From positions 1 to 64,000 of the forward strand of contig JAAUSR010000003.1 in NCBI GenBank assembly GCA_012032555.1: a stretch of DNA of 64,000 nt, given 5' to 3'. Of the stretch, positions 1-14,310 are shown in pieces; within the stretch, counting starts at the first letter, position 1; each line of letters opens with the position of its first letter. The position numbers and the translations under genes are program-made. Origin of the DNA: Thioploca sp. GTDB lineage: Bacteria; Pseudomonadota; Gammaproteobacteria; Beggiatoales; Beggiatoaceae. The notes below the pieces were generated by a model, which saw only the letters and a list, made by a program, of their open reading frames with translations, had not been told where the DNA came from and did not search any database.

Positions 1-2183
1 GTACGTGCCTGGATCGTCTGGTCAAGCAAAATAGCCAAATTATTTAGCGAACTGGCGGTAGCGGGATGGTTAGCACCTAATTCTTGCTCAAGAATCGCTA
101 ACGCCCGCCGGTACAACGGTTCAGCAGCAGAAAAGTTTCCCGTGGTATTAAAAAATCCAGCTAATTGATTTAGTAGATCAGCTAGCTCAATCGGTGTTGA
201 AACGGTTTTTTCATACTCAGCTAAAGTGGTTTTGTAGCAAGCAACCATGTTCGCTGAGGTTCCTAAATATCGCCAGTATTTCCATAGTTCATATTTCTTA
301 TCATCCTGCATTAATTGATGAAACATGGATATTTCGCTAATACAAGTTTGTAATTGGTTGTTTTCATTAGCATGGAACCAATGATAAGGCAATTCATCTG
401 CTTGACGACTATCTAGCGGTTGTTGGCTAAAATAACTGGCGAGGCGGCGATGAACCGATTGTTGATCAGTGACGGTGGGTAAATAACTTTGTTGCACAGC
501 TTGGCGAAAATAGTCATGCGCAAAACCCCATAAACTATTACGATTAATTAGGGCTTCACGCACAGCGAGAAAAAAAGGTAACCATTGATTTTGCGGGAGT
601 GGTTGTGCGGAACTTAACATGGTTAACCACTCGGTTTCGGTTAAGCCTCGGCGGGCTGCCCATAACACCGTCAAAGCATCTCGCACTAACTGAGGACGTT
701 CGCGTTCGTAATCAGCGGCTAATCGCGTTAACACTTTTTGGTACAACGCCACTACCGAATCTGCTGCTAAGTAATTATTGAGTTGTTGTTCTAATTCTTT
801 GAATTTACCAAACAACCGCAATTCTTCCAGTAATACTCGTAAATACAAAGGATTAGCGGTGAGCGGGGCGACGACTAACTGTTGAACGTGGTGTGGACTG
901 AGTTCTTTGTGATAGCGATGTAAATAGCGCCGAATTAAGTCCTCGCGTTCTAGTTCAGTTAATGGTGCGACTGTTAGCGTTGACCAAGCTCGCGATTCCA
1001 ATGCGGTTAAACTCATTCCGGGTAAAGTGGCAACCAGCAAGCGAATGCGTTTCGGAATGAAGCGTGGTAACCAATTTAACTGTTGTGCAGTTTCAGCGAG
1101 TTGGTTAAGCCCATCTAAAATCAGAATAATTCGGCGTCCTTGTTGTTCCGCTTGTGCATGAGCGGCGGCGAACCAAAAAGGTAAACGGTCACTAAGTTGT
1201 TGGGGATCCGTAGGTAGTGGTTCGGTCATGGTAAAATGCGTTTGCAATTCGGTCATGATGCGTCGTAATAAAACTGCTTCCTCAGTGCTGTAAGGCGAAC
1301 TACCGATGAAATGAAAAATCACCACATCTTGCGGGTGCCGCTGGCGATAACTTAACGCCCAATTAGCTAACAACGCTGATTTACCAATGCCGGACTCTCC
1401 CAGAATAATCAACGGTGGCTCATCACTCGCTGCTTGTGCATCTAATCGCTGTAAGTCTGCTGGGCGCTCAATGTACACTTGTTGCCGACTGCGGGCAAAA
1501 TATTCATGTTCTAAAGCTTCTTGTTGCTGGGGGGTGAGACGACGATTGAGCGGAAAGCGACGATTAATATAATGCCATAAATCGCGTAATATCCAATTCA
1601 CTAATTCATCGGGCTGTTGATAAGTTCGTACTGGTAGCCCACTGGCACGAATGCGTTGTTTTAAATCGGCTAACCGTTCTTGAGATTCTGGGGAATCGTC
1701 TGGAAATTGAGCAGCTGGTTGGGATGAGGCAGAATCCCGAAAATAATAGCGCATGAATTCAGGGATTGAGTTTGCAGTGCGGTGTTGCTCGGCTAGTGCT
1801 AATGCTTGCAAGATTTCTAATTCGGTTACGCTACTTCGTGGATTATGATCCGTTAACCAAGTATATTTGGCTTGCAAATCAGCATATTTTTCAGCATAAT
1901 TAGGTGATTGGAAATCATAGATCCGGCCATAACGTTCCCCTAAAATAGCGATAAAGTAAGGATAACAATCCGCTACCGCCGTCAAGCAAAGATCGATGAC
2001 TTCAGCTAGTTTTCGCTCTGCCGAGATTCCCCACCGTAAGTCGATAAAAACTAATTCGACACCCCGCCGACGACATTTTTGCGGTAACCGCAACCAGACT
2101 GATTTTGTTAATAATTCACGTTCTGCAACCAGATCGTCAAATGTCGAGGAAATAAAGACACGAATTTCACGAGAAATTGTCAT
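1..2183 (-). CDS. STAND-type signalling NTPase: DUF4062 + P-loop NTPase + TPR (3' end off window)
   Basis: The reading frame is open from an ATG at 2183 to the left edge of the window, so the C-terminus is missing (727 codons seen). The N-terminus reads REIRVFISSTFDDLVAEREL, the signature of the DUF4062 domain that precedes STAND NTPases. A Walker A motif, GESGIGKSALL, lies near residue 265 and a Walker B-like stretch, RIILILDGLNQL, near residue 355. The last visible residues, HPATASSLNNLAILL, are a kinesin-light-chain type TPR repeat, and more repeats probably follow. Proteins of this build are regulated switches: TPRs sense a ligand, and the NTPase oligomerises to turn on the effector domain. 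Several are antiphage or cell-suicide factors, but no effector activity is shown here. It is transcribed divergently from the vWA/PP2C/kinase genes. The domain assignment is firm; the role is inferred. Confidence 0.88.
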   Translation of the reverse strand, partial: MTISREIRVFISSTFDDLVAERELLTKSVWLRLPQKCRRRGVELVFIDLRWGISAERKLAEVIDLCLTAVADCYPYFIAILGERYGRIYDFQSPNYAEKYADLQAKYTWLTDHNPRSSVTELEILQALALAEQHRTANSIPEFMRYYFRDSASSQPAAQFPDDSPESQERLADLKQRIRASGLPVRTYQQPDELVNWILRDLWHYINRRFPLNRRLTPQQQEALEHEYFARSRQQVYIERPADLQRLDAQAASDEPPLIILGESGIGKSALLANWALSYRQRHPQDVVIFHFIGSSPYSTEEAVLLRRIMTELQTHFTMTEPLPTDPQQLSDRLPFWFAAAHAQAEQQGRRIILILDGLNQLAETAQQLNWLPRFIPKRIRLLVATLPGMSLTALESRAWSTLTVAPLTELEREDLIRRYLHRYHKELSPHHVQQLVVAPLTANPLYLRVLLEELRLFGKFKELEQQLNNYLAADSVVALYQKVLTRLAADYERERPQLVRDALTVLWAARRGLTETEWLTMLSSAQPLPQNQWLPFFLAVREALINRNSLWGFAHDYFRQAVQQSYLPTVTDQQSVHRRLASYFSQQPLDSRQADELPYHWFHANENNQLQTCISEISMFHQLMQDDKKYELWKYWRYLGTSANMVACYKTTLAEYEKTVSTPIELADLLNQLAGFFNTTGNFSAAEPLYRRALAILEQELGANHPATASSLNNLAILLDQTIQAR

Positions 2184-2922
2184 AGTATAGTGCCGTAGGA
2201 AATCTGTTTTAATGACTAACAAAAAAGTTTAGCATTTTTGGGGTTCAAGTATCTATAACAAATGTAGCTAAAATCTTATCGAGATGTTGTGGTTGATTAT
2301 TTGAGATAGATAAGAAGCATCAGTTTTCTTCGGTAGAATCACAGCGGTTGAATAAGTCTTGGTTATTTTTTAATGCCGTTAATCTAATAGGAAAAGGTTA
2401 GGTAAATCTAGAAGATGAGAGGAATTGATGAAACCGGGCAAAGAATAGAGTAAGTTATTAAGGGTTTGCTTGAGTGTGACCAGCACCCAAGCCCCCTAGC
2501 CGCTATTCAAACTTAGGTAGGAATTGTTTGAATAGCCGTCGTTTTCTATTAGAGCAAAACTGATACCAGTTTTAGTCAACTTATTCGATTTTAATTTAGC
2601 ACAATGGGTAGTAAGATTGGCGCCTTAGCAAGGCAGTGCTGGGAGAAGGTGGGTTATTTACAATAACTTTTTTATTTTAAAAAGTGTTATGATTTTTAAT
2701 GTCGTCTTGGCTATCTATCCATTTCAAATTTCTTGGCTAAACGAAATGATTGTGAATCTTATTTCTTTCAAGCAAGATAGATAGCACCACTGTCATAAAA
2801 ATGCCAGATTGTGTTAAAATGGTCATATCAGCATCAATAATTATTTTCAAATAATAATAATTATTATTAATTAATATAACTCATTATTAATCTTCAAATT
2901 TACTTAATTAAGGAATAATACT
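2184..2922. other. Divergent intergenic region, AT-rich
   Basis: No convincing gene is seen. The 740 bases separate the STAND gene from the vWA gene and must hold both promoters. The part just before the vWA start is almost pure A/T. One clear structure is the 10-bp inverted repeat listed separately. Confidence 0.5.
2503..2535. repeat. 10-bp perfect inverted repeat
   Basis: CTATTCAAAC at 2503-2512 is matched by GTTTGAATAG at 2526-2535 around a 13-base spacer. No T-run follows on the plus strand, so an operator or a transcript hairpin is as likely as a terminator. Confidence 0.5.
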
Positions 2923-3759
2923 ATGCCTGCTGCTATCAGTAGCGCTAATCCGTCGTGTTTTGTATTTCTTGTTGATCAATCGGCCTCGATGCAAAAACCA
3001 TTTGGTGGTAGCGAAGCTAACCAGAAGAAGAGCGAAGGAGTTGCGGACGCTATTAATCGTTGGTTACAAAATTTGATTATTAAGTGTGCCAAATCAGAAG
3101 GAATACGAGATTATTATTATGTGAGTGTTATCGGTTATGGTGCCCAAATTAATTCTGCTTTTAAAGGAGATTTAATTGGGAGGCGGTTAGTTCCTATTAG
3201 TCAAATTGCAAATCACCCGTTGCGAATTGAAAAACGAACTAAATTCGTTGATGATGACAGTGGTGATTTAGCTGAACAAACGCTCAAATTTCCGGTCTGG
3301 ATTGAACCCATTGCTAATGGACAAACGCCAATGTGCGAAGCTATTGTATTGGCACAAAGGATTCTTTCTAAATGGTTGGAGGAACATCCCGATTGTTTTC
3401 CACCCATTGTTATTAATATGACAGATGGTGCAGCTACCGATGGTGATCCACGCATTTTTGCTACTAAACTGACTCATTTGGCGAGCAGTGATGGGAATGT
3501 GTTGTTATTTAATATTAACTTTTCTTCCCACCAAGCGAACCCGATTGAATTTCCGGATAGCGACAAAAATTTAGTAGATAAATATGCTAAACAACTTTTT
3601 CAAATGTCGAGTTTGTTACCGGATTACATGAGAAAGATTGCTTCTCAGGAATACAACATCCCGGTTTCAAAAACAACTCGTGGTTTTACTTTTAATGCCG
3701 AGATGGTCGCGCTTATTAAATTTTTGGATATTGGTACCCGTCCAAGTAATTTAGAATAA
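2923..3759 (+). CDS. von Willebrand factor A domain protein, TerY-like
   Basis: This 278-residue protein is essentially a single vWA domain. The metal-ion-dependent adhesion site is intact: DQSAS at residues 18-22, a Thr in NGQTPMCEA near 134, and the Asp of MTDGAA near 167. There is no signal peptide, so it is probably cytoplasmic. It is preceded by AAGGAA seven to eight bases before the ATG. Only one base separates its stop from the ATG of the next gene (PP2C), and a kinase gene follows. A vWA + PP2C + kinase set is the established TerY-P triad, in which the vWA protein is thought to be the scaffold or target of reversible phosphorylation. The vWA fold is certain; the triad role rests on gene order. 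Confidence 0.9.
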   Translation: MPAAISSANPSCFVFLVDQSASMQKPFGGSEANQKKSEGVADAINRWLQNLIIKCAKSEGIRDYYYVSVIGYGAQINSAFKGDLIGRRLVPISQIANHPLRIEKRTKFVDDDSGDLAEQTLKFPVWIEPIANGQTPMCEAIVLAQRILSKWLEEHPDCFPPIVINMTDGAATDGDPRIFATKLTHLASSDGNVLLFNINFSSHQANPIEFPDSDKNLVDKYAKQLFQMSSLLPDYMRKIASQEYNIPVSKTTRGFTFNAEMVALIKFLDIGTRPSNLE

Positions 3760-3760
3760 A

Positions 3761-4492
3761 ATGCACATTACCGCCGAAACCTTTTGGTTACCTAAACAAG
3801 GTTATGCGCTATCTGACTATGAAGATGCTTATTATCCTAATTCGGTTATTAAACAACAAGTCAACATTTTTAGATGCGCCGTTGCCGATGGGGCAACCGA
3901 AAGTTCATTTTCCGGTCAATGGGCACAGTTATTAGTCAAGGCTTACTGTGAAGATAAGTTGGAAGTGGATGGGTTTAATTATTATCTACCCCAATTACAA
4001 CGGCAATGGATTAATCAAGTGACTACTCAACCTTTGCCTTGGTATGCTGAAGCCAAATTACAACAAGGTACATTTTCGACTTTAGTTGGGTTAACTTTGC
4101 ATAAACAACCGCCAATAGGTAAAGTACTCGCTATTGGCGATAGTTGTCTATTTCAGGTTCGTCAAGAAAAGCTTAATCACCGTTTTCCGCTAACTCATTC
4201 GCAACAATTTAATAACAATCCGTCTTTATTATCAAGCAACGTTTCATATAATAAGCACCTTGCACAATATATTTACCAGATAAACATCAAGTGGCAACCC
4301 GGAGATGAATTTTATCTCATGACCGATGCACTGGCTTACTGGTTTTTACATAATTATGAGCAGCATAGTCAACCCTGGCAAGCTTTGCGTCAATTAACTC
4401 AACAGAACTTTAAAGATTGGATTATTAAATTAATAGCAGCACAACACTTATCTAATGATGACGTGACTCTCATGCGTATCTTTCTTAAATAG
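3761..4492 (+). CDS. PP2C-family serine/threonine phosphatase
   Basis: The 243-residue protein carries the PP2C metal-binding motifs in order: AVADGATES near residues 39-47 (Asp-Gly pair), AIGDSCLF near 125, MTDA near 187, and a C-terminal NDDVTLM that matches the last metal-binding Asp of the family. Its length is close to the minimal bacterial PP2C domain, with no fused sensor. The ATG overlaps the end of the vWA gene except for one base, which suggests translational coupling. It should oppose the kinase encoded 95 bases downstream, removing phosphate from the vWA protein or a shared target. Family assignment is by motif; substrate is inferred. Confidence 0.88.
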   Translation: MHITAETFWLPKQGYALSDYEDAYYPNSVIKQQVNIFRCAVADGATESSFSGQWAQLLVKAYCEDKLEVDGFNYYLPQLQRQWINQVTTQPLPWYAEAKLQQGTFSTLVGLTLHKQPPIGKVLAIGDSCLFQVRQEKLNHRFPLTHSQQFNNNPSLLSSNVSYNKHLAQYIYQINIKWQPGDEFYLMTDALAYWFLHNYEQHSQPWQALRQLTQQNFKDWIIKLIAAQHLSNDDVTLMRIFLK

Positions 4493-4586
4493 TCAATTAC
4501 CCAGTATTTTCAATATTAAATGCCGATCGGAGTTGGTTAGTGTCTTCAATAAATATGAGAAAAAATGCTCCTGCTGATGATTCATT

Positions 4587-6455
4587 ATGATTTGTCCAAC
4601 CGCACTAGATTATAGTAATGCGATTCAAAATCCACATCTTAATTTTCAAGATCCTGAATTACAACAAGGTGAAGCAGAAATAACCCCGTTGGGATTACCT
4701 CGTCCTTGGAGTGGTAATTTTGCCACGGTTTTTCAAATGCATTGCCAACAAGAAGATTGGGCAGTTCGTTGTTTTACGCGTGAATTAAGCGATCAACAAT
4801 CTCGTTATGCGGTTATCCATCATCATTTAGAAATGGCTAAGTTACCTTATACTGTCCAATTTAGTTTTATTCCCAAAGGAATTAAAGTCAATGGTCAATG
4901 GTATCCTATTCTCAAAATGGCTTGGGTAGAAGGCGAATTGTTAGATCATTTTATTGTTAAACACTTACATAACGTTAGAATTTTACGTCAATTAGCTATC
5001 CGTTGGGTACGAATGGTTAAACAGCTAGAATCGGCTAAAATGGCACATGGTGATTTACAACATGGTAATATTCTAGTGGTTAAAGGTAATATTAAGTTAG
5101 TTGATTATGATGCCATGTTTGTTCCGGCACTGGGTGGACAAAAAAGTCGCGAAATTGGACATCATAATTATCAACACCCAGATCGATCGGCGAGTGACTT
5201 TGATGTTTATGTGGATCGTTTTTCAGCTTGGATTATTTATATCAGTCTAGTCGCATTGAGTCTTAATCCTGATCTATGGCAATTAGTGGGTGCCGGTGAT
5301 GAATTTATTTTGTTTTGCAGAGAAGATTTTGTCAAACCAGAAGAATCGTTACTTTTAGCTTTACTGGCAACTCATGAAGATCCGCGGTTACAATTACTAG
5401 CACAATTCGTTGAAAAATTACTCTCGATCCCTTTATCACAAATACCACCATTGCTATCACTCGCTAGGCAACTTGAACCACTACTTAATTTAGAAACGAC
5501 TCAGATTCGTTGCTTAAACGATTACATCAATTCTCAGTTAAAAGCGGAATTATTTGAACAATTGTTTTCAGCGAGAAACGATACATTAATAACAATCACC
5601 TCTACAGTAAAAATTAATACCCAATCAAATGAAAAATCAGCAAATAATTCAATAAATCAGACACCAGTGGTCGTAGAAAAAGACACTACACCACTTAATA
5701 AAAATAAATCAAATAATCTACTTGTTGATTTACCGAGAGCATTGCCAATGGTGCCTTGGTTGCAAAATTCGACTAAACTGGCTTCATCGCCAACTCATTT
5801 AGTAGCAGAAATGGAATCAGTGCAATGGTTTCAACAAGCGGCTCAACAAGGTCATGCGGAAGCTCAATATACCTTAGCTTGGATGTATGCGCAGGGAAGA
5901 GGTGTTTCTCAAGATTTACAACAAGCCGCTAAATTATTTCGTCGCGCGGCGCTTAAGGGTTATGCCGAGGCTCAATACCATCTCGGTCTCATGTATATTC
6001 AAGGAATAGGAGTTCCTCAAAATCATACTCAAGCAGCCCACTGGTTTGTTAAAGCGGCTATACAAGGACATGTAGCGGCTCGCCAAGCACGCGTTAACTT
6101 ATATCTTAAAATTGCAGAACAAGGTGATATTCAAGCACAATATTTATTGTGGGTCATGTTTACTCAAGGAGAAACGGGAATTACTCAACCTTTACAGTGG
6201 CTTCAGCGAGCCGCTGAGCAGGGTTATGTTACCGCTCAATATACCTTGGCAACCTTATATGAGCAAGGTAGTGATATTCCACGTGATTTTTCTAAGGCCA
6301 CCTATTGGTATAGACAAGCGCTAAAGCATGGTCATTTTTTAGCGGTTAAACGATACTTAAGGTTGTGGATTTTTCGTTATCAAGATAAAATTAAAATTAT
6401 ATTTATATTGTTGTTGTTATTAGGGATTTCTATAGTATTATATCAATATAGTTAA
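4587..6455 (+). CDS. Protein kinase-like protein with Sel1 repeats and C-terminal membrane anchor
   Basis: There are 622 residues. The first 290 or so form a eukaryotic-like kinase fold: catalytic loop HGDLQHGNILV at about 153-163 and a DYD in place of DFG near 172. The usual VAVK lysine position reads WAVRCF, so the ATP-contacting Lys appears replaced by Arg. A low-complexity Asn/Thr-rich linker follows (about 335-380). At least four Sel1-type repeats come next (about 408-585, for example AEAQYTLAWMYAQGRGVSQD). One hydrophobic segment of about 20 residues ends the protein, so it is probably tail-anchored with the kinase in the cytoplasm. It is the third member of the vWA-PP2C-kinase set. The Sel1 repeats would recruit partners. 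The Arg substitution leaves open a pseudokinase. Confidence 0.88.
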   Translation: MICPTALDYSNAIQNPHLNFQDPELQQGEAEITPLGLPRPWSGNFATVFQMHCQQEDWAVRCFTRELSDQQSRYAVIHHHLEMAKLPYTVQFSFIPKGIKVNGQWYPILKMAWVEGELLDHFIVKHLHNVRILRQLAIRWVRMVKQLESAKMAHGDLQHGNILVVKGNIKLVDYDAMFVPALGGQKSREIGHHNYQHPDRSASDFDVYVDRFSAWIIYISLVALSLNPDLWQLVGAGDEFILFCREDFVKPEESLLLALLATHEDPRLQLLAQFVEKLLSIPLSQIPPLLSLARQLEPLLNLETTQIRCLNDYINSQLKAELFEQLFSARNDTLITITSTVKINTQSNEKSANNSINQTPVVVEKDTTPLNKNKSNNLLVDLPRALPMVPWLQNSTKLASSPTHLVAEMESVQWFQQAAQQGHAEAQYTLAWMYAQGRGVSQDLQQAAKLFRRAALKGYAEAQYHLGLMYIQGIGVPQNHTQAAHWFVKAAIQGHVAARQARVNLYLKIAEQGDIQAQYLLWVMFTQGETGITQPLQWLQRAAEQGYVTAQYTLATLYEQGSDIPRDFSKATYWYRQALKHGHFLAVKRYLRLWIFRYQDKIKIIFILLLLLGISIVLYQYS

Positions 6456-6581: not shown

Positions 6582-6802
6582 TTGATATCATGTTATTCTA
6601 TTTTATTAAGCGGTTACGCCCAAGCAGAAAATACTTTTATTAATCAAACCATTGTTGAAACAGAGCTAGCGGCACTAGAAAATACTGAAATAAAAATCAT
6701 TCAAGTAGAAGCTATGGCCGCAGAAAATGCCGGCAAGCTGTGGAACAAAACCCTACTACTACTCCACCTTCACAACATGTTATAAATAATCAATTAAATT
6801 GA
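6582..6802 (+). pseudogene. Small exported-protein remnant, start lost and one frameshift
   Basis: A reading frame beginning with a TTG at 6582 opens with a hydrophobic stretch ending SGYAQA, like the end of a signal peptide, and continues as a Glu/Ala-rich segment. At about 6737-6740 one base seems to be missing: the next frame continues as VEQNPTTTPPSQHVINNQLN and stops at 6802, which looks like a more natural tail than the listed frame. No ATG or good ribosome site is present upstream. I do not recognise a family. It may be the end of the kinase operon or a decayed lipoprotein. Confidence 0.3.
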
Positions 6803-7091: not shown

Positions 7092-7724
7092 GTGAACGTC
7101 ATTGCTTGTGTACATCAAAAAGGCGGAACCGGTAAAACAACGTTGGCTATCAGCGTTGCTCTCACACTGGCACAACAAAATCAACGCGTGTTATTACTGG
7201 ATACAGATTATCAAGGTACAGCCAGTGATTGGGGACAACAGTTTGGTGAAGTTTTCAACATTGTAGTTCGTTCCCAAGTACAAGCGAATATCCAACTAGA
7301 ACAAGACATCAAGCATTTTCAAACCCATTTTAATTGGTGTGTCATTGATGCAGCGCCTACTTTATCAGATATTACGGTGAAAATCTTACAACTCAGCCAC
7401 GAGTTACTTATTCCAATTCGTCCAGCCCTACCTGACATTTGGGCTATATCAAGATTAGCTTCTCTCATCCATCAAACTCATCGCGCAGTTGGTTACATAC
7501 CCAAAACTAAAGTCATATTTAACCAGTATCAAGGCGAGATTTTACCACCACTCTATGCCGCATTAAGGCAATATCATTTACCGGTTTCCTCTACTTTATT
7601 GCCGCTTGACCCACGCTTTGCTGCTTTATTTACCGGTCAGTCGCTTTCACCATCCTTACGAAGATTGGTTCAAAATTTACTAACCGAAGAAATACCCAAA
7701 AAACTTTTTAACGAACAAAAATAA
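7092..7724 (+). CDS. ParA/MinD-family ATPase (orphan)
   Basis: The protein carries the deviant Walker A motif KGGTGKTT, the VLLLDTDYQGTASDW segment and the Walker B-like VIDAAPTLSD, in the order typical of ParA ATPases that move plasmids, chromosomes or other cargo. I choose GTG at 7092 because it gives the usual short N-terminus (V/M-N-V-I-A-C-V then KGGTGKTT) and about 210 residues. A longer frame from TTG 7002 exists. Further up, a better ribosome site (GGAGCTAG) precedes ATG 6981, but that frame meets a TAG at 6999-7001. No ParB or parS-like partner is visible next to it. It ends at a strong hairpin shared with the convergent sat gene. The ATPase call is sure; the cargo is unknown. Confidence 0.82.
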   Translation: MNVIACVHQKGGTGKTTLAISVALTLAQQNQRVLLLDTDYQGTASDWGQQFGEVFNIVVRSQVQANIQLEQDIKHFQTHFNWCVIDAAPTLSDITVKILQLSHELLIPIRPALPDIWAISRLASLIHQTHRAVGYIPKTKVIFNQYQGEILPPLYAALRQYHLPVSSTLLPLDPRFAALFTGQSLSPSLRRLVQNLLTEEIPKKLFNEQK

Positions 7725-7725
7725 G

Positions 7726-7762
7726 TTGAATAAAGCACATCATGCTACTGTGCTTTATTCAA
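7726..7762. terminator. Bidirectional terminator hairpin between parA-like gene and sat
   Basis: TTGAATAAAGCACA at 7726-7739 pairs perfectly with TGTGCTTTATTCAA at 7749-7762 around a nine-base loop. It sits between two convergent genes, so it can end transcription from both sides. Confidence 0.75.
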
Positions 7763-7787
7763 GAAATGATATTAATTAAGAATATTG

Positions 7788-8984
7788 TTATTGTTGTTGA
7801 ACTTGACTCTGATAATATCCCATTAAAATTTTTGCGACTTCCGGACGAGAAAATTCGGGTGGTAAATCTTTACCCGCTGATAACATTTCTCGTACTTTGG
7901 TGCCAGAGAGGAGAACAAAATCATCTTTGGTATGATCGGGTACATCACGCATCATCACGACTTTATTGAGCTTCTTCGAATAAGCCGTATGATCGGCACG
8001 GAAAATTTCGATTTGTAAAGCACCTGGAGGAACTTCCCGATCAAAAATAGTTTGTGCATCAAAAGCACCATAATAGTCACCTACACCGGCATGGTCACGA
8101 CCAATGATAAAGTGAGTACAGCCCGCATTTTGCCGAAATATCGCATGTAATACCGCTTCCCGTGGACCCGCATACAGCATATCAAAACCATAACCCGTAA
8201 TCATAACGGTGTTAGGGGGGAAATAAATTTCTACCATCTTCCGAATAGAAGCATCGCGTATTGGTGCCGGGATATCACCGGCTTTTAGTCTACCCAGTAA
8301 CATGTGAATAAGAACACCATCGGCTTTGACAGCCTCTTTCGCTATTTTACAAAGTTCTTCATGCGCACGATGCATCGGATTACGGGTTTGAAAGGCGACT
8401 ACCTTTTGCCAGCCCCTTTCTTGAATTTCATTACGAATTTCTACGGCGGTACGGAAAGTATCCGGAAAGTCTTGTTGGAAATAGCTGAAATTCAGCACTT
8501 GAATTGGCCCAGAAATAGCGTATTTACCTAAAGAAGTAAACGTAGCAACTCCAAAATGGCCTATTTCTAAGGTACCAAAAATTCTTTCTGCCATGAAATT
8601 GAATTGTTCGTCACTTATCTGTTCAATGGCTTCAACATCCTGAATGGCTAAAACCGGATGTCCTTCAATATTGGGATCACGTAAAGCAATTCGCTTCGCC
8701 CCCGCAATTGACGAAATATCATTAGTCAGATTAAAAACCGGAACTGGCCAAAATAAACCGCTAGTTGTATGCATTTTTTCAGCGATATTCATGGCATCAG
8801 CGACGTTCATATAGCCAGTCAAAGGGTTAAAGTAACCTCCACCCAGCATAACTGCATTAGCAGCCGCTGCTGAATTGAGTAATAAAGAAGGTAACTCTTT
8901 AGCTTCTTGCATTAATTGTTGATGTTTTTTCTCGTTATACACAAATAACGGATTTAGCGTTTCCGATCCGTGTGGCTTGATCAT
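7788..8984 (-). CDS. sat: Sulfate adenylyltransferase (ATP sulfurylase), homo-oligomeric Sat
   Basis: The 398-residue protein matches the single-chain Sat family used in dissimilatory sulfur metabolism, not the CysD/CysN pair. Catalytic motifs are intact: QTRNPMHRAHE near residue 195 and GRDHAGVGDYYGAF near 293. Sat interconverts ATP + sulfate and APS + pyrophosphate. In sulfur oxidisers it runs towards ATP synthesis, with APS supplied by AprAB. The aprAB genes are not next to it here. The ATG at 8984 is preceded by TAGGAGCA, a good ribosome site. A hairpin 40-80 bases upstream lies in its leader. Identity is firm; the oxidative direction is inferred from the likely host. Confidence 0.96.
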   Translation of the reverse strand: MIKPHGSETLNPLFVYNEKKHQQLMQEAKELPSLLLNSAAAANAVMLGGGYFNPLTGYMNVADAMNIAEKMHTTSGLFWPVPVFNLTNDISSIAGAKRIALRDPNIEGHPVLAIQDVEAIEQISDEQFNFMAERIFGTLEIGHFGVATFTSLGKYAISGPIQVLNFSYFQQDFPDTFRTAVEIRNEIQERGWQKVVAFQTRNPMHRAHEELCKIAKEAVKADGVLIHMLLGRLKAGDIPAPIRDASIRKMVEIYFPPNTVMITGYGFDMLYAGPREAVLHAIFRQNAGCTHFIIGRDHAGVGDYYGAFDAQTIFDREVPPGALQIEIFRADHTAYSKKLNKVVMMRDVPDHTKDDFVLLSGTKVREMLSAGKDLPPEFSRPEVAKILMGYYQSQVQQQ

Positions 8985-9775
8985 TATTTGCTCCTAAGTA
9001 TTCACATAATGGTGCCTAAGTATAAAAAAACCTTGTTTAGTGAGTGAAGGAATAAGGTTTTTATCACTTTAAAATATTTCCTTTTATTATTTACGCTGCG
9101 TATTATACCTGTTATCCCTGTTGTTTCGAGTAATTTATGGGTATTTTTTTATAAAAATAAAAATAGTTAACATAAAAAATATATATTGTTAACCTGATTA
9201 AGTTGGGTATCTTAAATAACTACCCTGATTCACTTCTCGCTTTTAAACTTAAAGAAGAAAGACAAACGAGATCATGATTAGTGTAACAATGGTAGTAAAT
9301 CTGGGCTATAACATTGAAATAATGATTGACTATACTGAATTTATTTAGGTTATTGACCCATCTATTTTAAATAATATCAGAGAACAGGTATAAATATTGC
9401 CTTTTCGCTCGTATCCTATTTTCAGAAACGAATATCATCATGATGAACCGAGTTCTCGATTTGAAAATCTATTTATAAACTCAGCATTTTATAACAGCTC
9501 GGTTAAGCCCTTTTATTAAAGGAACATCATTTTTTGGTGAATAATAATAAATTAAGCCTGATAATAAGTTGATCGCCACGATTTTGCTTTGAAAAGGTAT
9601 CATTATTCTTCCGAGATATGATAAGAAACTAATTCTCTTTTGGCAGAGACAAGATGAGTAAATAACATGAAAAAGCGCTTGTTATCCTATTTTTTTATTA
9701 TTTTGACTTTTTTTTATTAACTCCTCCTTAACATGGGCTAAATCTACTGAATTTTTAAAAAAAGAAAGCACCAAG
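8985..9775. other. Divergent intergenic region with leader hairpin and broken signal-peptide sequence
   Basis: No complete gene is seen. AAAAACCTT at 9026-9034 pairs with AAGGTTTTT at 9054-9062 in the leader of sat, which could act as an attenuator or terminator. The end of the region (from ATG 9667) encodes the probable signal peptide of the WD40 protein in a shifted frame. Confidence 0.55.
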
Positions 9776-11266
9776 ATGGATAATTGTCAAGCTAATCCCA
9801 ACAGTTTACCACTACTGATGAAAATACCCATTGGTAAACACCAACTTGAGGTTAGAAATCAGTGTAAATATGTTATCGTAAAGGTTACCTTTGCCGACGG
9901 TCGGGAAGTCAGCCGGAAAATAACCTTAGTTGATACTATTCCGTCACTATCTATAGAAGATAAAGAAATTAAGATAACGGATATTTTTAATCCTATTCAA
10001 GATAGTTTCGAAACAGAGATAGAGTTTAAAAAACGTCAACAATTCCTATTAGATAATCAATCACGATTGCTTAATTTATTTAATCAATTGGTACAAAAAC
10101 ATGAGCCACATTATCAGGCTGGAATTGCTTATTTAGATAAAGACAACTACAACATTAAAAACAATACGTTTCCAGTCTCTATTGAATGGCGAAGTTGGGC
10201 CAATCAATTTGAATTACCGGTTCAGGCTAGCATTACAGCAACACAAAGTGAGGCTCGTCGTTTATGGCATGAAGGCTCGCGAAAACCAGTTTATATTTAT
10301 ATGGGAATGGTTGGAGAACAAGTGAGAGTGAACCAACAAATTTTAATTGGGCTTGAACAAGAATGGGTCGTTCGGAACCCTTTACCCACTCATTTATTAA
10401 ACACCTTACGGGGACATAAAAAAACAGTATACTCAGTTGATTTTAGCCCTGATGGTAAAATCCTCGCCTCTGGAAGCCGAGATAACACTGTTAAACTTTG
10501 GAATATGGAAACTAAACAAGAAATCAGTACCTTACAAGGCCACGGTAATTCTGTATTCTCGGTAGCAATTAGTCCTCAAGGAAATATTCTCGCCTCTGGG
10601 AGTAAGGATAGAACTATTAAATTATGGGATCTCAATACGAATCAAGTCATACGAACTTGGCGTCATAAAGATGGTGTCAGGGTCGTGACTTTTAGTCATG
10701 ATGGTCGTATTCTCGCCTCGGGTAGCTATGATGGTACCATTAAATTATGGGAAGTCAAATCGGGTCGATTATTAAATACCATCGATGCTCATCGAGAAGG
10801 CGTACTGGCCATTGCTTTTGCACCAGATGATAAGATTATCGCTTCTGGCGGTAAAGAAGAAATGATCAAATTGTGGAATGTCACCACCAGGCAACTAGAA
10901 AAAACGATTCGGGCTGATGGTGACCGAGTATGGGCATTAGCCTTCAATCCGGATGGCTTTTTATTGGCGGCTGGTAGTGGCGATAATTCTCTCAAAATAT
11001 GGGAGACCAAAACCGGTAATGAATTACACAATTTACAGGGACATGGATACTGGGTGTTATCATTAGCTTTTAGTCAGGATGGACGGGTACTCGCTTCTGG
11101 TAGTAGTGATAGTACTATTCGATTATGGGAAGTAAATAGTGGTAATCAGTTGGATATTCTACAACAACATGGTAATTCAGTATTTTCAGTCACTTTCAGC
11201 CCAGATGGACGTTTCCTCGCTTCTGGCAGTAAAGATGAAACTGTTAAATTATGGGGAGCAAAGTAA
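9776..11266 (+). CDS. WD40 repeat protein, seven-bladed beta-propeller, probably exported
   Basis: The C-terminal 290 residues hold seven consecutive WD40 repeats, each ending in a variant of KLW (for example SGSRDNTVKLWN), enough for one closed propeller. The first 200 residues form a domain I do not recognise. The ATG at 9776 has no convincing ribosome site. Reading upstream in the same frame gives SLTWAKSTEFLKK, and an ATG at 9667 in another frame encodes MKKRLLSYFFIILTFF. The two join into a perfect signal peptide ending in TWA if one T is removed from the run of eight T at 9708-9715. The real gene therefore probably starts at 9667 and the protein is secreted to the periplasm or beyond. 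The propeller is certain; ligand and role are unknown. Confidence 0.85.
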   Translation: MDNCQANPNSLPLLMKIPIGKHQLEVRNQCKYVIVKVTFADGREVSRKITLVDTIPSLSIEDKEIKITDIFNPIQDSFETEIEFKKRQQFLLDNQSRLLNLFNQLVQKHEPHYQAGIAYLDKDNYNIKNNTFPVSIEWRSWANQFELPVQASITATQSEARRLWHEGSRKPVYIYMGMVGEQVRVNQQILIGLEQEWVVRNPLPTHLLNTLRGHKKTVYSVDFSPDGKILASGSRDNTVKLWNMETKQEISTLQGHGNSVFSVAISPQGNILASGSKDRTIKLWDLNTNQVIRTWRHKDGVRVVTFSHDGRILASGSYDGTIKLWEVKSGRLLNTIDAHREGVLAIAFAPDDKIIASGGKEEMIKLWNVTTRQLEKTIRADGDRVWALAFNPDGFLLAAGSGDNSLKIWETKTGNELHNLQGHGYWVLSLAFSQDGRVLASGSSDSTIRLWEVNSGNQLDILQQHGNSVFSVTFSPDGRFLASGSKDETVKLWGAK

Positions 11267-11493
11267 TTCTATATATTTCTAAGTGGTTAAAAATATAATC
11301 TTGATTTTAATTAGTATTCATTTAACAATGTAGGCAAGTGTTAGCACCTATTTTATAATACAAATAGCGATTAACCTCATATCCCGGAACTCTATCGTTA
11401 TCCAAAAGTGTTTTCCTCGGAAAAAGACTATCTTGCAAAATAGGGAGGAATTCAATTTTGGACAACACTAAGTCTTGATTTCAAGAGAATACT
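11267..11493. other. Intergenic region upstream of ileS
   Basis: This 227-base gap contains no gene that I can support. A purine-rich AGGGAGGAATT at about 11441 lies too far from the ileS GTG to be its ribosome site. The usual neighbour ribF is absent. Confidence 0.4.
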
Positions 11494-14310
11494 GTGAGCG
11501 AATATAAAGATACTTTAAATCTACCTCAAACGGATTTCCCGATGCGAGGCAATTTATCTCAGCGAGAACCATCAATCTTACAACGGTGGGAAGAACTTAA
11601 TCTATATCAACAGTTAAGACAACAAGGGCAAAAATATCCCCTTTTCATCTTGCATGATGGTCCACCTTATGCCAATGGTGATATCCATATTGGCCATGCG
11701 GTTAATAAAATTCTTAAAGACCTTATCGTCAAAGCACGAACCCTGAGTGGCTTCAATGTGCCTTATATCCCCGGGTGGGATTGTCACGGATTACCGATTG
11801 AATTAGAAGTAGAAAAAAATCATGGTCAAGTTGGTTATGAAGTCAATGCCAAAGATTTTCGTCAAGCCTGTCGTCACTATGCTAATCGACAAATAGAGAG
11901 ACAACGCGCTGATTTTAAAAGGTTAGGTATTATTGGGGATTGGGATAATCCTTATTTAACAATGGACTATCGCACCGAGGCTAATATTATTCGAGCTTTA
12001 GGGCGTATTATTGCTGCCGGACACGTTGATAAAGGTTTTAAACCCGTTCACTGGTGTACTGATTGTGGTTCAGCTTTAGCCGAAGCCGAAGTCGAGTATG
12101 AGGAAAAAGATTCTATTGCTATCGATGTTCGCTTTCCCGTTCTAGATGAATCGGCTCTACTAGCACGTTGTCACCATGCTCCAGAACGAGTAGGTTCTGG
12201 GCCGATCTCTGTCGTTATTTGGACAACCACGCCTTGGACTTTACCCGCTAATCAAGCTGTTGCGCTTCATCCTCATTTAGACTATTCCGTGGTGCAATGC
12301 CAAGAAGGTCAATATGGTACTGAACGTCTTATCGTTGCCGAAGCCTTACTTAAAGATACCCTATTCCGATATGGTATTGAACATTATCATGTTATTGCCT
12401 ATTGCTTAGGTAAAGACTTGGAAGGATTACAATTACAACATCCTTTCTATAATCGTCAAGTTCCTCTCATTCTGGGTGAACATGTCACAACTGAAGCGGG
12501 TACCGGTGCCGTTCATACCGCGCCAGGACATGGGCAAGAAGACTATGTGATTGGAAACCGTTATGGGTTACCGATAGATAATCCAGTCGATGGTAATGGT
12601 TGCTTTCTGCCTACTACGGAGTTCTTTGCCGGCGAAAATGTTTTCAAAGCCAATGAACACGTTATAGAAGTCCTTAAAGCCCGAGGTAATTTACTGCATG
12701 AACGTCGGATTCGTCACAGCTATCCTTATTGTTGGCGTCACAAAACTCCCATTATTTTTCGTGCGACTCCACAATGGTTTATCAGTATGGAAAAACAAAA
12801 CTTACGTCAACAGGCTTTAGCCGCTATTAAGACGGTCTCATGGACTCCAGAGTGGGGAGAACAACGAATTGAAGGTATGGTTGCAAATCGTCCGGATTGG
12901 TGTATTTCTCGGCAACGTAATTGGGGTGTCCCAATGCCTTTATTTATTCATAAAATGACCGGTACTCTACACCCCCGTACAACTGAATTAATTGAAATGG
13001 TGGCGCAACGAGTGGAACAAACCGGCATTGATGCTTGGTTTGAACTCTCAATAAAAGAATTATTAGGTGCAGAAGCCGCTGATTATGAAAAAATAACCGA
13101 TACCTTGGATGTTTGGTTTGATTCCGGGGTGACACAAGCCACTATTTTAGAAAACCATCCTCAATTACAGTTCCCCGCAGACTTATATTTAGAAGGTTCT
13201 GACCAACATCGTGGTTGGTTCCAATCCTCACTACTCACTTCAGTCGCCATGCGAGCCGGGGTAGCACCTTATAAATCGGTTCTCACTCATGGTTTTACGG
13301 TTGACGCTGACCGGAAAAAGATGTCGAAGTCTTTGGGTAATGTCATTGTCCCTCAGAAAATTATTAAGACTTGGGGAGCAGATATTTTACGTCTTTGGGT
13401 AGCTGCTACCGATTACCGTGGTGAGATTACCGTCTCTAATGAAATTCTAACCCGTATTGCTGAAGCCTACCGTCGCTTGCGTAATACCGCCCGTTTTTTA
13501 TTAGCTAACCTGCATGGTTTTAATCCAGCGACCGATTGTCTTGCACCAGAACAGATGTTAAGTCTTGACCGTTGGGCAGTTGATCGGGCTTGGCAATTAC
13601 AACAACAACTCATCAAGGCTTATGATGCTTACCTATTCCATGTCGTTTATCAAAAAATTCATCATTTTTGCGCAGTGGATATGGGTAGTCTTTACCTCGA
13701 CATTATTAAAGATCGCCAATATACTTGCCAAACCAATAGTTTAGCTCGTCGTTCTGCCCAAACCGCATTGTATCATATTGCTGAAGCTTTAGTTCGCTGG
13801 TTAGCTCCTATTCTCAGTTTTACCGCCGAAGATATTTGGCAATATTTACCTGGTCAACGAAGCCAATCAGTATTACTCGAAATGTCTTGGTATCAAGGCT
13901 TATTTGCTTATTCTGCTGCCGGATCATGGGAAAAAATTTTTGCTATCCGCGAGGTCGTTAATAGAGAATTAGAAAAATTACGTATTGCAGAAACTATCGG
14001 CTCCTCATTAGACGCGGAAGTCGATATTTATTGTGACAATCCCATTTATACTCAATTAGCGGCATTAGGCGATGAACTCCGCTTTGTATTTATTACTTCT
14101 TATGCTCGTGTTCACCCCATAAATACTAGGCCAGACGCAGTAGAACCGGGGAATGAATTTGGATTACAAGTGACCCCCTCACCACATCCTAAATGTATTC
14201 GTTGTTGGCATCATCGTGAAGAGGTGGGAACTCACACTGAACATCCACAATTATGTGGACGTTGTATCGAAAATGTTATTGGTCAGGGTGAACAGCGTCG
14301 CTATGCCTAA
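11494..14310 (+). CDS. ileS: Isoleucyl-tRNA synthetase
   Basis: The 938-residue class I synthetase charges tRNA-Ile with isoleucine. The HIGH motif appears as [11 protein letters not shown] near residue 62 and KMSKS near 608. The editing domain includes [13 protein letters not shown]. The C-terminal zinc-binding knot of bacterial IleRS is intact (CIRCW and CGRC, about residues 900-922). Length matches the usual 930-940. The start is GTG at 11494, in line with the family N-terminus [19 protein letters not shown]. Its last eight bases overlap lspA, the standard gammaproteobacterial order ileS-lspA. Confidence 0.97.

What the first reader, a model, noticed from the sequence alone, without database searches (positions are those of the whole stretch)
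2923..6455. vWA - PP2C - kinase/Sel1 set: a TerY-P-type phosphorylation triad with a membrane-anchored kinase
Three adjacent plus-strand genes encode a vWA protein with an intact MIDAS, a minimal PP2C phosphatase and a kinase-like protein. The TerY-P triad is known from comparative genomics of tellurite/stress-linked systems. Here the kinase is fused to Sel1 repeats and a C-terminal membrane anchor, and its ATP-contacting Lys appears to be Arg (WAVRCF). This makes the third component unusual: either a divergent kinase or a pseudokinase scaffold.
Basis: partly seen in the sequence, partly recalled or inferred. Interest (0 to 1): 0.75.

Follow-up and report, generated by a model that had tools for sequence, protein, structure and literature searches.

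The report
TerY-P triad with Sel1-tailed kinase
Three neighbouring bacterial genes form a known type of protein-phosphorylation switch, linked elsewhere to phage defence, whose kinase here carries an unusual Sel1-repeat scaffold and a membrane tail; the kinase residue that looked odd is normal for its family.

Summary
The three genes match PADLOC's TerY, PP2C and STK_OB profiles, with metal-binding and catalytic residues intact. A model of the third protein's N-terminal domain is a bilobal kinase (pLDDT 82; best Z 17.5, to PKR). It continues into Sel1 repeats (Pfam E 1.5e-32) and a hydrophobic C-terminal helix (residues 602-620).

The Lys-to-Arg change is real but not unusual. R61 aligns with the beta-3 Lys of other kinases and is invariant in 16 of 16 relatives aligned, three OB-type TerY-P kinases included. 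Beta-3 Arg plus DYD is a published bacterial kinase motif (PMC12599244, section 12 read).

What is new is the tail. The OB half of the profile is unmatched. Sel1 plus tail anchor was seen only in the window and its congener G040, under purifying selection (Sel1 dN/dS 0.12). Within the order, related kinase domains carry at least five other C-termini: PEGA+WD40, PEGA+FGE, TPR+Lcl_C, coiled coil+HhH, membrane helices. I read it as a TerY-P-like reversible phosphorylation switch with an interchangeable input module, here cytoplasmic and membrane-tethered: a new variant of a known kind.

The parts
2923..3759 (+). TerY-type vWA protein, 278 aa, intact MIDAS (D18, S20, S22, T135, D168)
   Evidence: PADLOC TerY E 2.2e-95; MIDAS invariant in 10 of 10; dN/dS 0.094 versus congener
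3761..4492 (+). Minimal PP2C-type Ser/Thr phosphatase, 243 aa; Asp kept at D22, D43, D127, D189, D233, D234
   Evidence: PADLOC PP2C 1.3e-33, Pfam PP2C_2 2.6e-9; these Asp invariant in 11 of 11; dN/dS 0.098. That such Asp form the metal site is recalled from PP2C motifs
4587..6455 (+). Kinase - linker - Sel1 repeats - C-terminal membrane helix, 622 aa
4587..5459 (+). Kinase domain (residues 1-291): beta-3 R61, catalytic-loop H154-G-D156...N161, D173-Y-D175
   Evidence: STK_OB 2.3e-77 over 1-291; AF2 pLDDT 82, pTM 0.81, R61 in strand 57-62; VIA-align Z 17.5 to PKR 6d3k; motifs invariant or nearly so
5460..5801 (+). Linker (about residues 292-405), mostly disordered in the model, fast-evolving
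   Evidence: Residues 301-411 with pLDDT under 50; dN/dS 0.394
5802..6356 (+). Sel1 repeat superhelix (about residues 406-590), predicted cytoplasmic
   Evidence: Pfam Sel1 1.5e-32, 3 stretches; full-length model matches Sel1 crystal structures, e.g. 6ok3 E 3.6e-10; dN/dS 0.121
6390..6446 (+). Single C-terminal membrane helix (residues 602-620), tail-anchor-like
   Evidence: Hydropathy 2.47 over 19 residues; basic residues on its N side, so N-in/C-out is inferred

Best explanation
A TerY-P-like reversible Ser/Thr phosphorylation switch. The kinase is a divergent but most likely active member of the TerY-P kinase family that uses beta-3 Arg paired with a DYD motif in place of the Lys-Glu pair. 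It is tethered to the inner face of the membrane by its last helix and senses or recruits partners through cytoplasmic Sel1 repeats. The PP2C protein reverses its autophosphorylation or substrate phosphorylation. The vWA protein, through its MIDAS metal site, acts as the adaptor that binds a peptide or partner and couples the two enzymes. In relatives the kinase domain is kept while the C-terminal module differs, so that module probably sets the input. The output is probably phage defence or another stress response. Shown: gene set, folds, motifs, conservation, purifying selection, different modules on related kinase domains. Inferred: catalytic activity, topology, adaptor role of vWA, input role of Sel1, defence output.
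For: Three matches to PADLOC profiles with consecutive accessions, TerY, PP2C, STK_OB (that these make up its TerY-P system is recalled). Kinase fold. R61, D156, N161, D173 invariant in 16 of 16, D175 in 15 of 16; R61 aligns to the beta-3 Lys of ULK3 and IKK-beta. PP2C and MIDAS residues invariant. All three genes and the Sel1 part under purifying selection against G040. Of 11 kinase copies in the order, 5 sit in triads whose frames all look intact, in the order vWA-PP2C-kinase. The same gene order occurs in Campylobacteraceae L038 and on two cyanobacterial plasmids (the Calothrix PP2C was recognised by eye). Different modules on sister kinase domains. Published, seen as passages: OB-type TerY-P modules and a Pseudomonas TerY-P are anti-phage (PMC11090510, PMC7699616, PMC10889362). 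E. coli YegI autophosphorylates and is dephosphorylated by PphC (PMC13232886).
Against: No activity is shown for this protein or any relative here. No Glu is conserved in helix alphaC, and a review counts about 60% of DYD kinases as pseudokinases by motif. The OB module of the tested defence form is absent. The triad has the same downstream neighbours in the only congener found and no mobile gene was noticed beside it. The set is not always complete: 3 of the 11 kinases of the order have no PP2C beside them (L035 in 18 kb; L037 and L034 at contig ends), one PP2C gene is split (L032) and one kinase tail is out of frame (L033). Foldseek TM-scores of the kinase model are modest (query-normalised 0.39-0.57 in the 50 rows listed), and the five AF2 models ranged from pLDDT 82 to 52.
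Confidence: 0.7

Rival explanations
1. The third protein is a pseudokinase scaffold: it binds ATP through Arg but does not transfer phosphate, and PP2C and vWA act on another kinase's product.
For: Beta-3 Arg, no conserved alphaC Glu. The DYD family is about 60% annotated as pseudokinase. In 3 of 11 copies of the order no PP2C lies beside the kinase.
Against: Catalytic-loop Asp and Asn and the metal-binding Asp are invariant in 16 of 16. A PP2C with intact Asp residues is the usual neighbour. The review itself models ATP in DYD kinases with an Arg-Asp salt bridge. E. coli YegI, whose lack of conserved motifs is stated in the title of a paper cited in PMC13232886, is reported there to autophosphorylate.
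Confidence: 0.17
2. The triad is a housekeeping or envelope-stress regulator in this genus (YegL-PphC-YegI-like), not a defence system. This is a rival about the output only.
For: Downstream synteny in the congener, other input modules that look extracytoplasmic, and the same gene set in E. coli K-12.
Against: Patchy distribution: strong matches in 8 of 42 genomes of the order but only 2 genomes outside the order in four overlapping samples of 369, 398, 385 and 394; plasmid and viral-contig copies; tested relatives are anti-phage (passages).
Confidence: 0.35
3. The Sel1-TM tail is a chance fusion or assembly artefact.
For: Found in one genus only, among the genomes searched.
Against: Same fusion in another genome (G040, one 4.8 Mb contig) at 84% identity over 216 residues of the Sel1-TM part, Sel1 dN/dS 0.121, one open frame in both.
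Confidence: 0.02

Closest known systems
TerY-P triad, STK-OB form (Gao et al. 2020, primary paper not held, known here from passages; PADLOC TerY / PP2C / STK_OB)
   Same: All three profiles match, gene order vWA-PP2C-kinase as in the OB-type loci seen; kinase domain homologous over profile 1-292, same R61, HGD..N and DYD. Two of the OB kinases seen also end in a single membrane helix (L041 of G412, L045).
   Different: OB half of the profile unmatched, Sel1 repeats in its place; kinase domain only 34-36% identical to the three OB types; anti-phage activity untested.
TerY-P triad, zinc-ribbon form of CoCoNuT and ter-linked clusters (Anantharaman et al. 2012, not held, as cited in PMC11090510)
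   Same: Same three components.
   Different: No zinc ribbon in the Pfam scan, no TerD in the genome. CoCoNuT core genes were not searched for.
Kinase-PP2C-vWA sets beside GAP1-N2 GTPase systems (PMC7159879, passage)
   Same: A protein kinase, in some cases fused to membrane helices, next to PP2C and a stand-alone vWA gene.
   Different: No Sel1 mentioned in that passage; the GTPase and tubulin-like partners were not searched for here.
E. coli YegL-PphC-YegI
   Same: vWA, PP2C and membrane kinase genes in one locus; kinase and phosphatase reported to act on each other. The C-terminal coiled coil-HhH region of YegI matches the tail of a TerY-P kinase of this order (L031, E 5e-11).
   Different: No phmmer match of the window proteins to the three, no TerY, PP2C or STK_OB match in PADLOC; no Sel1.
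DYD family of bacterial Ser/Thr kinases (PMC12599244)
   Same: Beta-3 Arg, no alphaC Glu, D-Y-D, predicted membrane association.
   Different: The review reports it from actinobacteria and firmicutes; homology to its representative was not tested.

Membership tests
TerY-P triad (broad sense) | TerY-type vWA gene | tested here: met
   PDLC02224 E 2.2e-95 over 5-276 of 277
TerY-P triad (broad sense) | PP2C gene of the TerY-P type | tested here: met
   PDLC02222 E 1.3e-33 over 28-238 of 242
TerY-P triad (broad sense) | TerY-P kinase domain, adjacent | tested here: met
   PDLC02223 E 2.3e-77 over the kinase half; gaps 1 and 94 nt
TerY-P, STK-OB form (tested anti-phage form) | C-terminal OB fold on the kinase | tested here: not met
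   Profile match stops at 292 of 562; Sel1 instead. OB-type relatives match to 498-555 (four proteins). So it is filed as TerY-P-like, not as this form
TerY-P, STK-OB form (tested anti-phage form) | Anti-phage activity | not testable with these tools
   Needs plaque assays
TerY-P, zinc-ribbon/ter-linked form | Association with ter (TerD) genes | tested here: not met
   No PF02342 match in the own genome (0 of 1; control 2 of 14)
DYD kinase family | Beta-3 Arg with D-Y-D | tested here: met
   R61, D173-Y174-D175
DYD kinase family | Absence of the alphaC Glu | tested here: met
   No Glu conserved across the 16 rows in helix 70-84
DYD kinase family | Phylogenetic grouping with the published family (representative WP_153409036.1) | not tested
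   Representative sequence not fetched
YegL-PphC-YegI | Sequence homology of the three proteins | tested here: not met
   No phmmer match at E <= 10 for four window queries (vWA, PP2C, kinase half, C-terminal half) against three E. coli targets; a more sensitive profile comparison was not run
Protein kinase fold | Bilobal kinase structure | tested here: met
   AF2 pLDDT 82, pTM 0.81; 1000 of 1000 chains re-aligned with Z >= 8, best 17.5, rmsd 3.8 over 247

The most novel reading that the evidence does not exclude
TerY-P kinases are a modular receptor chassis in this bacterial order: the same Arg-type kinase, mostly with PP2C and vWA partners, is fitted with interchangeable input domains (PEGA-WD40, PEGA-FGE, TPR-Lcl_C and coiled coil-HhH behind a membrane helix; Sel1 in front of one). 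In the Sel1 version the input has moved from outside to inside the cell, so it reads an intracellular cue, possibly phage-made, at the membrane.
Probability: 0.35. Interest if true: 0.55.

Novelty: new variant of a known kind. Interest (0 to 1): 0.36.

Why it matters
It moves attention from one odd residue, which is a family trait, to the part that does vary: the C-terminal module of TerY-P kinases. If the module is the input, this order offers a natural set of domain swaps on one kinase chassis for asking what TerY-P senses; the passages read here give hypotheses on that (metal, nucleic acid) but no experiment. It also shows that a TerY-P-like system without an OB fold still matches current defence-gene profiles strongly, so such a match should not by itself imply the OB form.

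Tried and rejected
Tellurite/ter linkage: no support in this genome, no TerD. A second TerY-P in the genome: one STK_OB and one TerY match only. Homology to E. coli YegI/PphC/YegL: no phmmer match, although a C-terminal region is shared with another kinase of the order. Phage genomes: no match to the kinase domain in the annotated phage collection at E 1e-5; none in IMG/VR with the single sequence, one with the alignment. Diversity-generating retroelement idea for relatives ending in Lcl_C or FGE domains (that such domains are DGR targets is recalled; a passage of PMC7517822, links C-type lectin domains and kinases in cyanobacteria): the last 220 bases of the kinase genes of L032 and L034 have no second copy in those fetched loci; L029, a WD40 ending, shows only its own repeats. 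Elsewhere in those genomes was not searched. Promoter and terminator scans: no more sites than in shuffles (15 against a mean of 18.8; 2 against 3.1). Full-length structure: pLDDT 62.7 overall, so the kinase domain was modelled alone. Coordinates were not at hand, so the R61-D175 salt bridge was not measured. Genome-collection scan with one sequence gave one locus. Rows dropped: A2 (10 rows) leaves out the vWA of L032, which appears in two overlapping frames, and those cut by the locus ends (L040, L041); A3 (11 rows) leaves out the split PP2C of L032 and the Calothrix PP2C, which has an N-terminal extension; A1 holds all 16 kinases in hand, L045 came later and also has the Arg. The tree has long branches (Acaryochloris, G023b, Calothrix), so their place is unsure.
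Full report
1. What is there. Three + strand genes lie at 2923-3759, 3761-4492 and 4587-6455, with gaps of 1 and 94 nt. The first is a TerY-type vWA protein (PADLOC E 2.2e-95), the second a PP2C phosphatase (PADLOC 1.3e-33, Pfam 2.6e-9), the third a TerY-P kinase (PADLOC STK_OB 2.3e-77 over residues 1-291, profile 1-292 of 562) that continues into Sel1 repeats (Pfam 1.5e-32) and a hydrophobic C-terminal helix at 602-620. General Pfam models are weak for the vWA (0.0033) and kinase (29.2 bits against a cut-off of 31.7), so the call rests on the dedicated profiles, the alignments and the fold.

2. Motifs. In 16 aligned kinases (all in hand at that point) G43, R61, H154, D156, Q158, N161, D173 and Y174 are invariant, and D175 is Asp in 15 of 16, Glu in L035. 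The later L045 has R61 too. The profile aligns R61 to the beta-3 Lys, and D156 and N161 to the catalytic-loop Asp and Asn, of both ULK3 and IKK-beta; D173 aligns to the DFG Asp of ULK3, while in the IKK-beta alignment a gap intervenes there. The vWA MIDAS residues are invariant in 10 of 10 and six PP2C Asp residues in 11 of 11. So the Arg is a family trait. A review describes a DYD family of bacterial kinases with beta-3 Arg, no alphaC Glu, and a modelled salt bridge from the Arg to the second Asp of DYD (PMC12599244, section 12 read). The window kinase shows all three sequence features.

3. Structure. The kinase domain alone, modelled on three sequences, gives pLDDT 82 and pTM 0.81 (best of five models, 82 to 52), with R61 in strand 57-62 followed by helix 70-84. 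Foldseek returns kinases with modest TM-scores (query-normalised 0.39-0.57 in the 50 rows listed). All of the 1000 chains re-aligned by VIA-align have Z of 8 or more, the best being PKR 6d3k (Z 17.5, rmsd 3.8 over 247). The full-length model is poor overall (62.7) but its C-terminal part is a confident superhelix that matches Sel1 crystal structures (6ok3 E 3.6e-10), and kinases appear from rank 26 on. Residues 301-411 are disordered in it.

4. Selection and context. Against the only congener found (G040), dN/dS is 0.094 (vWA), 0.098 (PP2C), 0.116 (kinase domain), 0.394 (linker), 0.121 (Sel1) and 0.488 (last 32 residues, few sites). Downstream synteny is shared with G040: a ParA-like gene, an ATP-sulfurylase-like gene (by eye) and a WD40 gene. 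Upstream is not: the window has a minus-strand DUF4062-NACHT-TPR protein, G040 an NRPS-like gene and a methyltransferase-like fragment (names by eye). The genome has one STK_OB and one TerY match and no TerD.

5. Relatives. In the order, 21 of 42 genomes match the kinase profile at E <= 0.001, but only 8 of 42, with 11 copies, strongly (E <= 2.3e-58); the best matches of the other 13 are at E 2.2e-8 or worse, cover a small part of the profile, and are probably ordinary kinases (at that lax threshold 2 of 14 control genomes also ring). Samples at E <= 1e-20 of the class (2 of 369, both in this order), phylum (3 of 398, the window's own included), class of G412 (1 of 385) and order of G567 (1 of 394) add only G567 and G412 outside the order; the samples overlap, and no control genome rings. 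Of the 11 copies, 5 have vWA and PP2C beside them with all frames apparently intact (window, G040, both of G023, G024). A sixth triad (G029, L033) has the kinase tail out of frame where an Lcl_C-like part begins. One has its PP2C split between frames (G028, L032), one is cut by the contig end after PP2C (G025, L030), and three have no PP2C beside them: L037 (vWA only) and L034, both at contig ends of G030, and L035 of G028, with neither within 18 kb. Further afield the triad is on a Campylobacteraceae contig and on Acaryochloris and Calothrix plasmids (Calothrix PP2C by eye).

6. The tail is what varies. The 11 copies end in: Sel1 plus terminal helix (window, G040); helix then PEGA and WD40 (G024, G025); helix, PEGA and FGE-type domain (G030 L034), with a contig-cut copy whose start of an FGE-like part was read by eye (L037); helix, TPR and Lcl_C (G028 L032); helix and TPR, out of frame before an Lcl_C-like part (G029 L033); two helices, coiled coil and HhH (G023 L031, coiled coil and HhH by eye); membrane helices (G023 L036); nothing (L035). 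The helices come from hydropathy alone; the scan also flagged a segment inside the kinase domain of L035 and of the Acaryochloris kinase, which I take as false. In those with a helix between kinase and module, the module is probably outside the cytoplasm; in the Sel1 pair the helix is last, so Sel1 is probably inside. The closest layout is the OB kinase with a terminal helix (G412, L045). Ten of the 11 kinase domains form one clade (99/99), with the Sel1 pair together (100/100) and next to G023 L031 (91/87, not strong). So different tails sit on one kinase lineage, which I read as exchange. The tail of L031 matches E. coli YegI (5e-11), though the window's kinase has no detectable match to YegI.

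7. How it probably works. Shown: gene set, folds, residues, selection, tail diversity. Inferred: the kinase is active, using Arg-Asp in place of Lys-Glu; it sits on the inner membrane face; Sel1 repeats bind the partner that triggers or localises it; PP2C reverses it; vWA bridges by a metal-dependent peptide contact (role of MIDAS as in PMC7159879, passage). For the enzyme pair the best published parallel is E. coli, where YegI is reported to autophosphorylate and PphC to dephosphorylate it (PMC13232886, passage; primary papers not held). For output, TerY-P modules with an OB kinase are reported as stand-alone anti-phage systems, and a TerY-P protects Pseudomonas cells (passages). Defence is therefore likely but not shown; a regulatory role is the main rival.

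8. Known or new. The triad is known, and a kinase fused to membrane helices beside PP2C and vWA genes has been described (PMC7159879, passage). The OB-defined form is not met, so I file this as TerY-P-like with a Sel1 tail. A search for TerY with Sel1 in the held papers found one paper, where the two words occur in separate passages; a search for Sel1 repeat, protein kinase domain, bacterial and fused found none. Bacterial kinase fusions with TPR, WD and FGE-type domains have been described (PMC1262709, passages; the word Sel1 does not occur in it). The library is open-access only, so absence from it is weak evidence.

9. Limits. Species names are not given for the genomes; a Beggiatoa-like order is my guess from recall, untested. 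Cyanobacteria were not surveyed. No coordinates were available to measure the active site.

Noticed in passing
window 3-2222 (minus strand, runs off the window): STAND-type protein with DUF4062, NACHT and TPR next to the triad; weak PADLOC STAND_TPR match (2.7e-8). Not at this place in the congener.
   Followed up: partly
L031 (G023) 9652-11922: TerY-P kinase whose C-terminal coiled coil-HhH region matches E. coli YegI (5e-11): a module apparently shared between two triad lineages.
   Followed up: partly
L032 (G028) 7107-8166: PP2C gene split between two frames, so this triad looks decayed; no repair attempted.
   Followed up: no
L033 (G029), end of the kinase gene at 6777: Kinase frame stops where an Lcl_C-like sequence goes on in another frame; described only.
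   Followed up: no
L035 (G028) 8774-9697: Orphan 307-aa TerY-P kinase with DYE in place of DYD, no vWA or PP2C match within the 18 kb fetched.
   Followed up: partly
L045 102-1748 (IMG/VR contig): OB-type TerY-P kinase with a terminal hydrophobic helix on a contig classed as viral.
   Followed up: no
L036 (G023) 2731-4164: PP2C protein of 477 aa with a hydrophobic stretch and further C-terminal part (by eye); the phosphatase of a triad may also be membrane-bound.
   Followed up: no
window 9776-11266: WD40 protein three genes downstream of the kinase, kept in the congener; some relatives of the triad kinase carry WD40 propellers.
   Followed up: no
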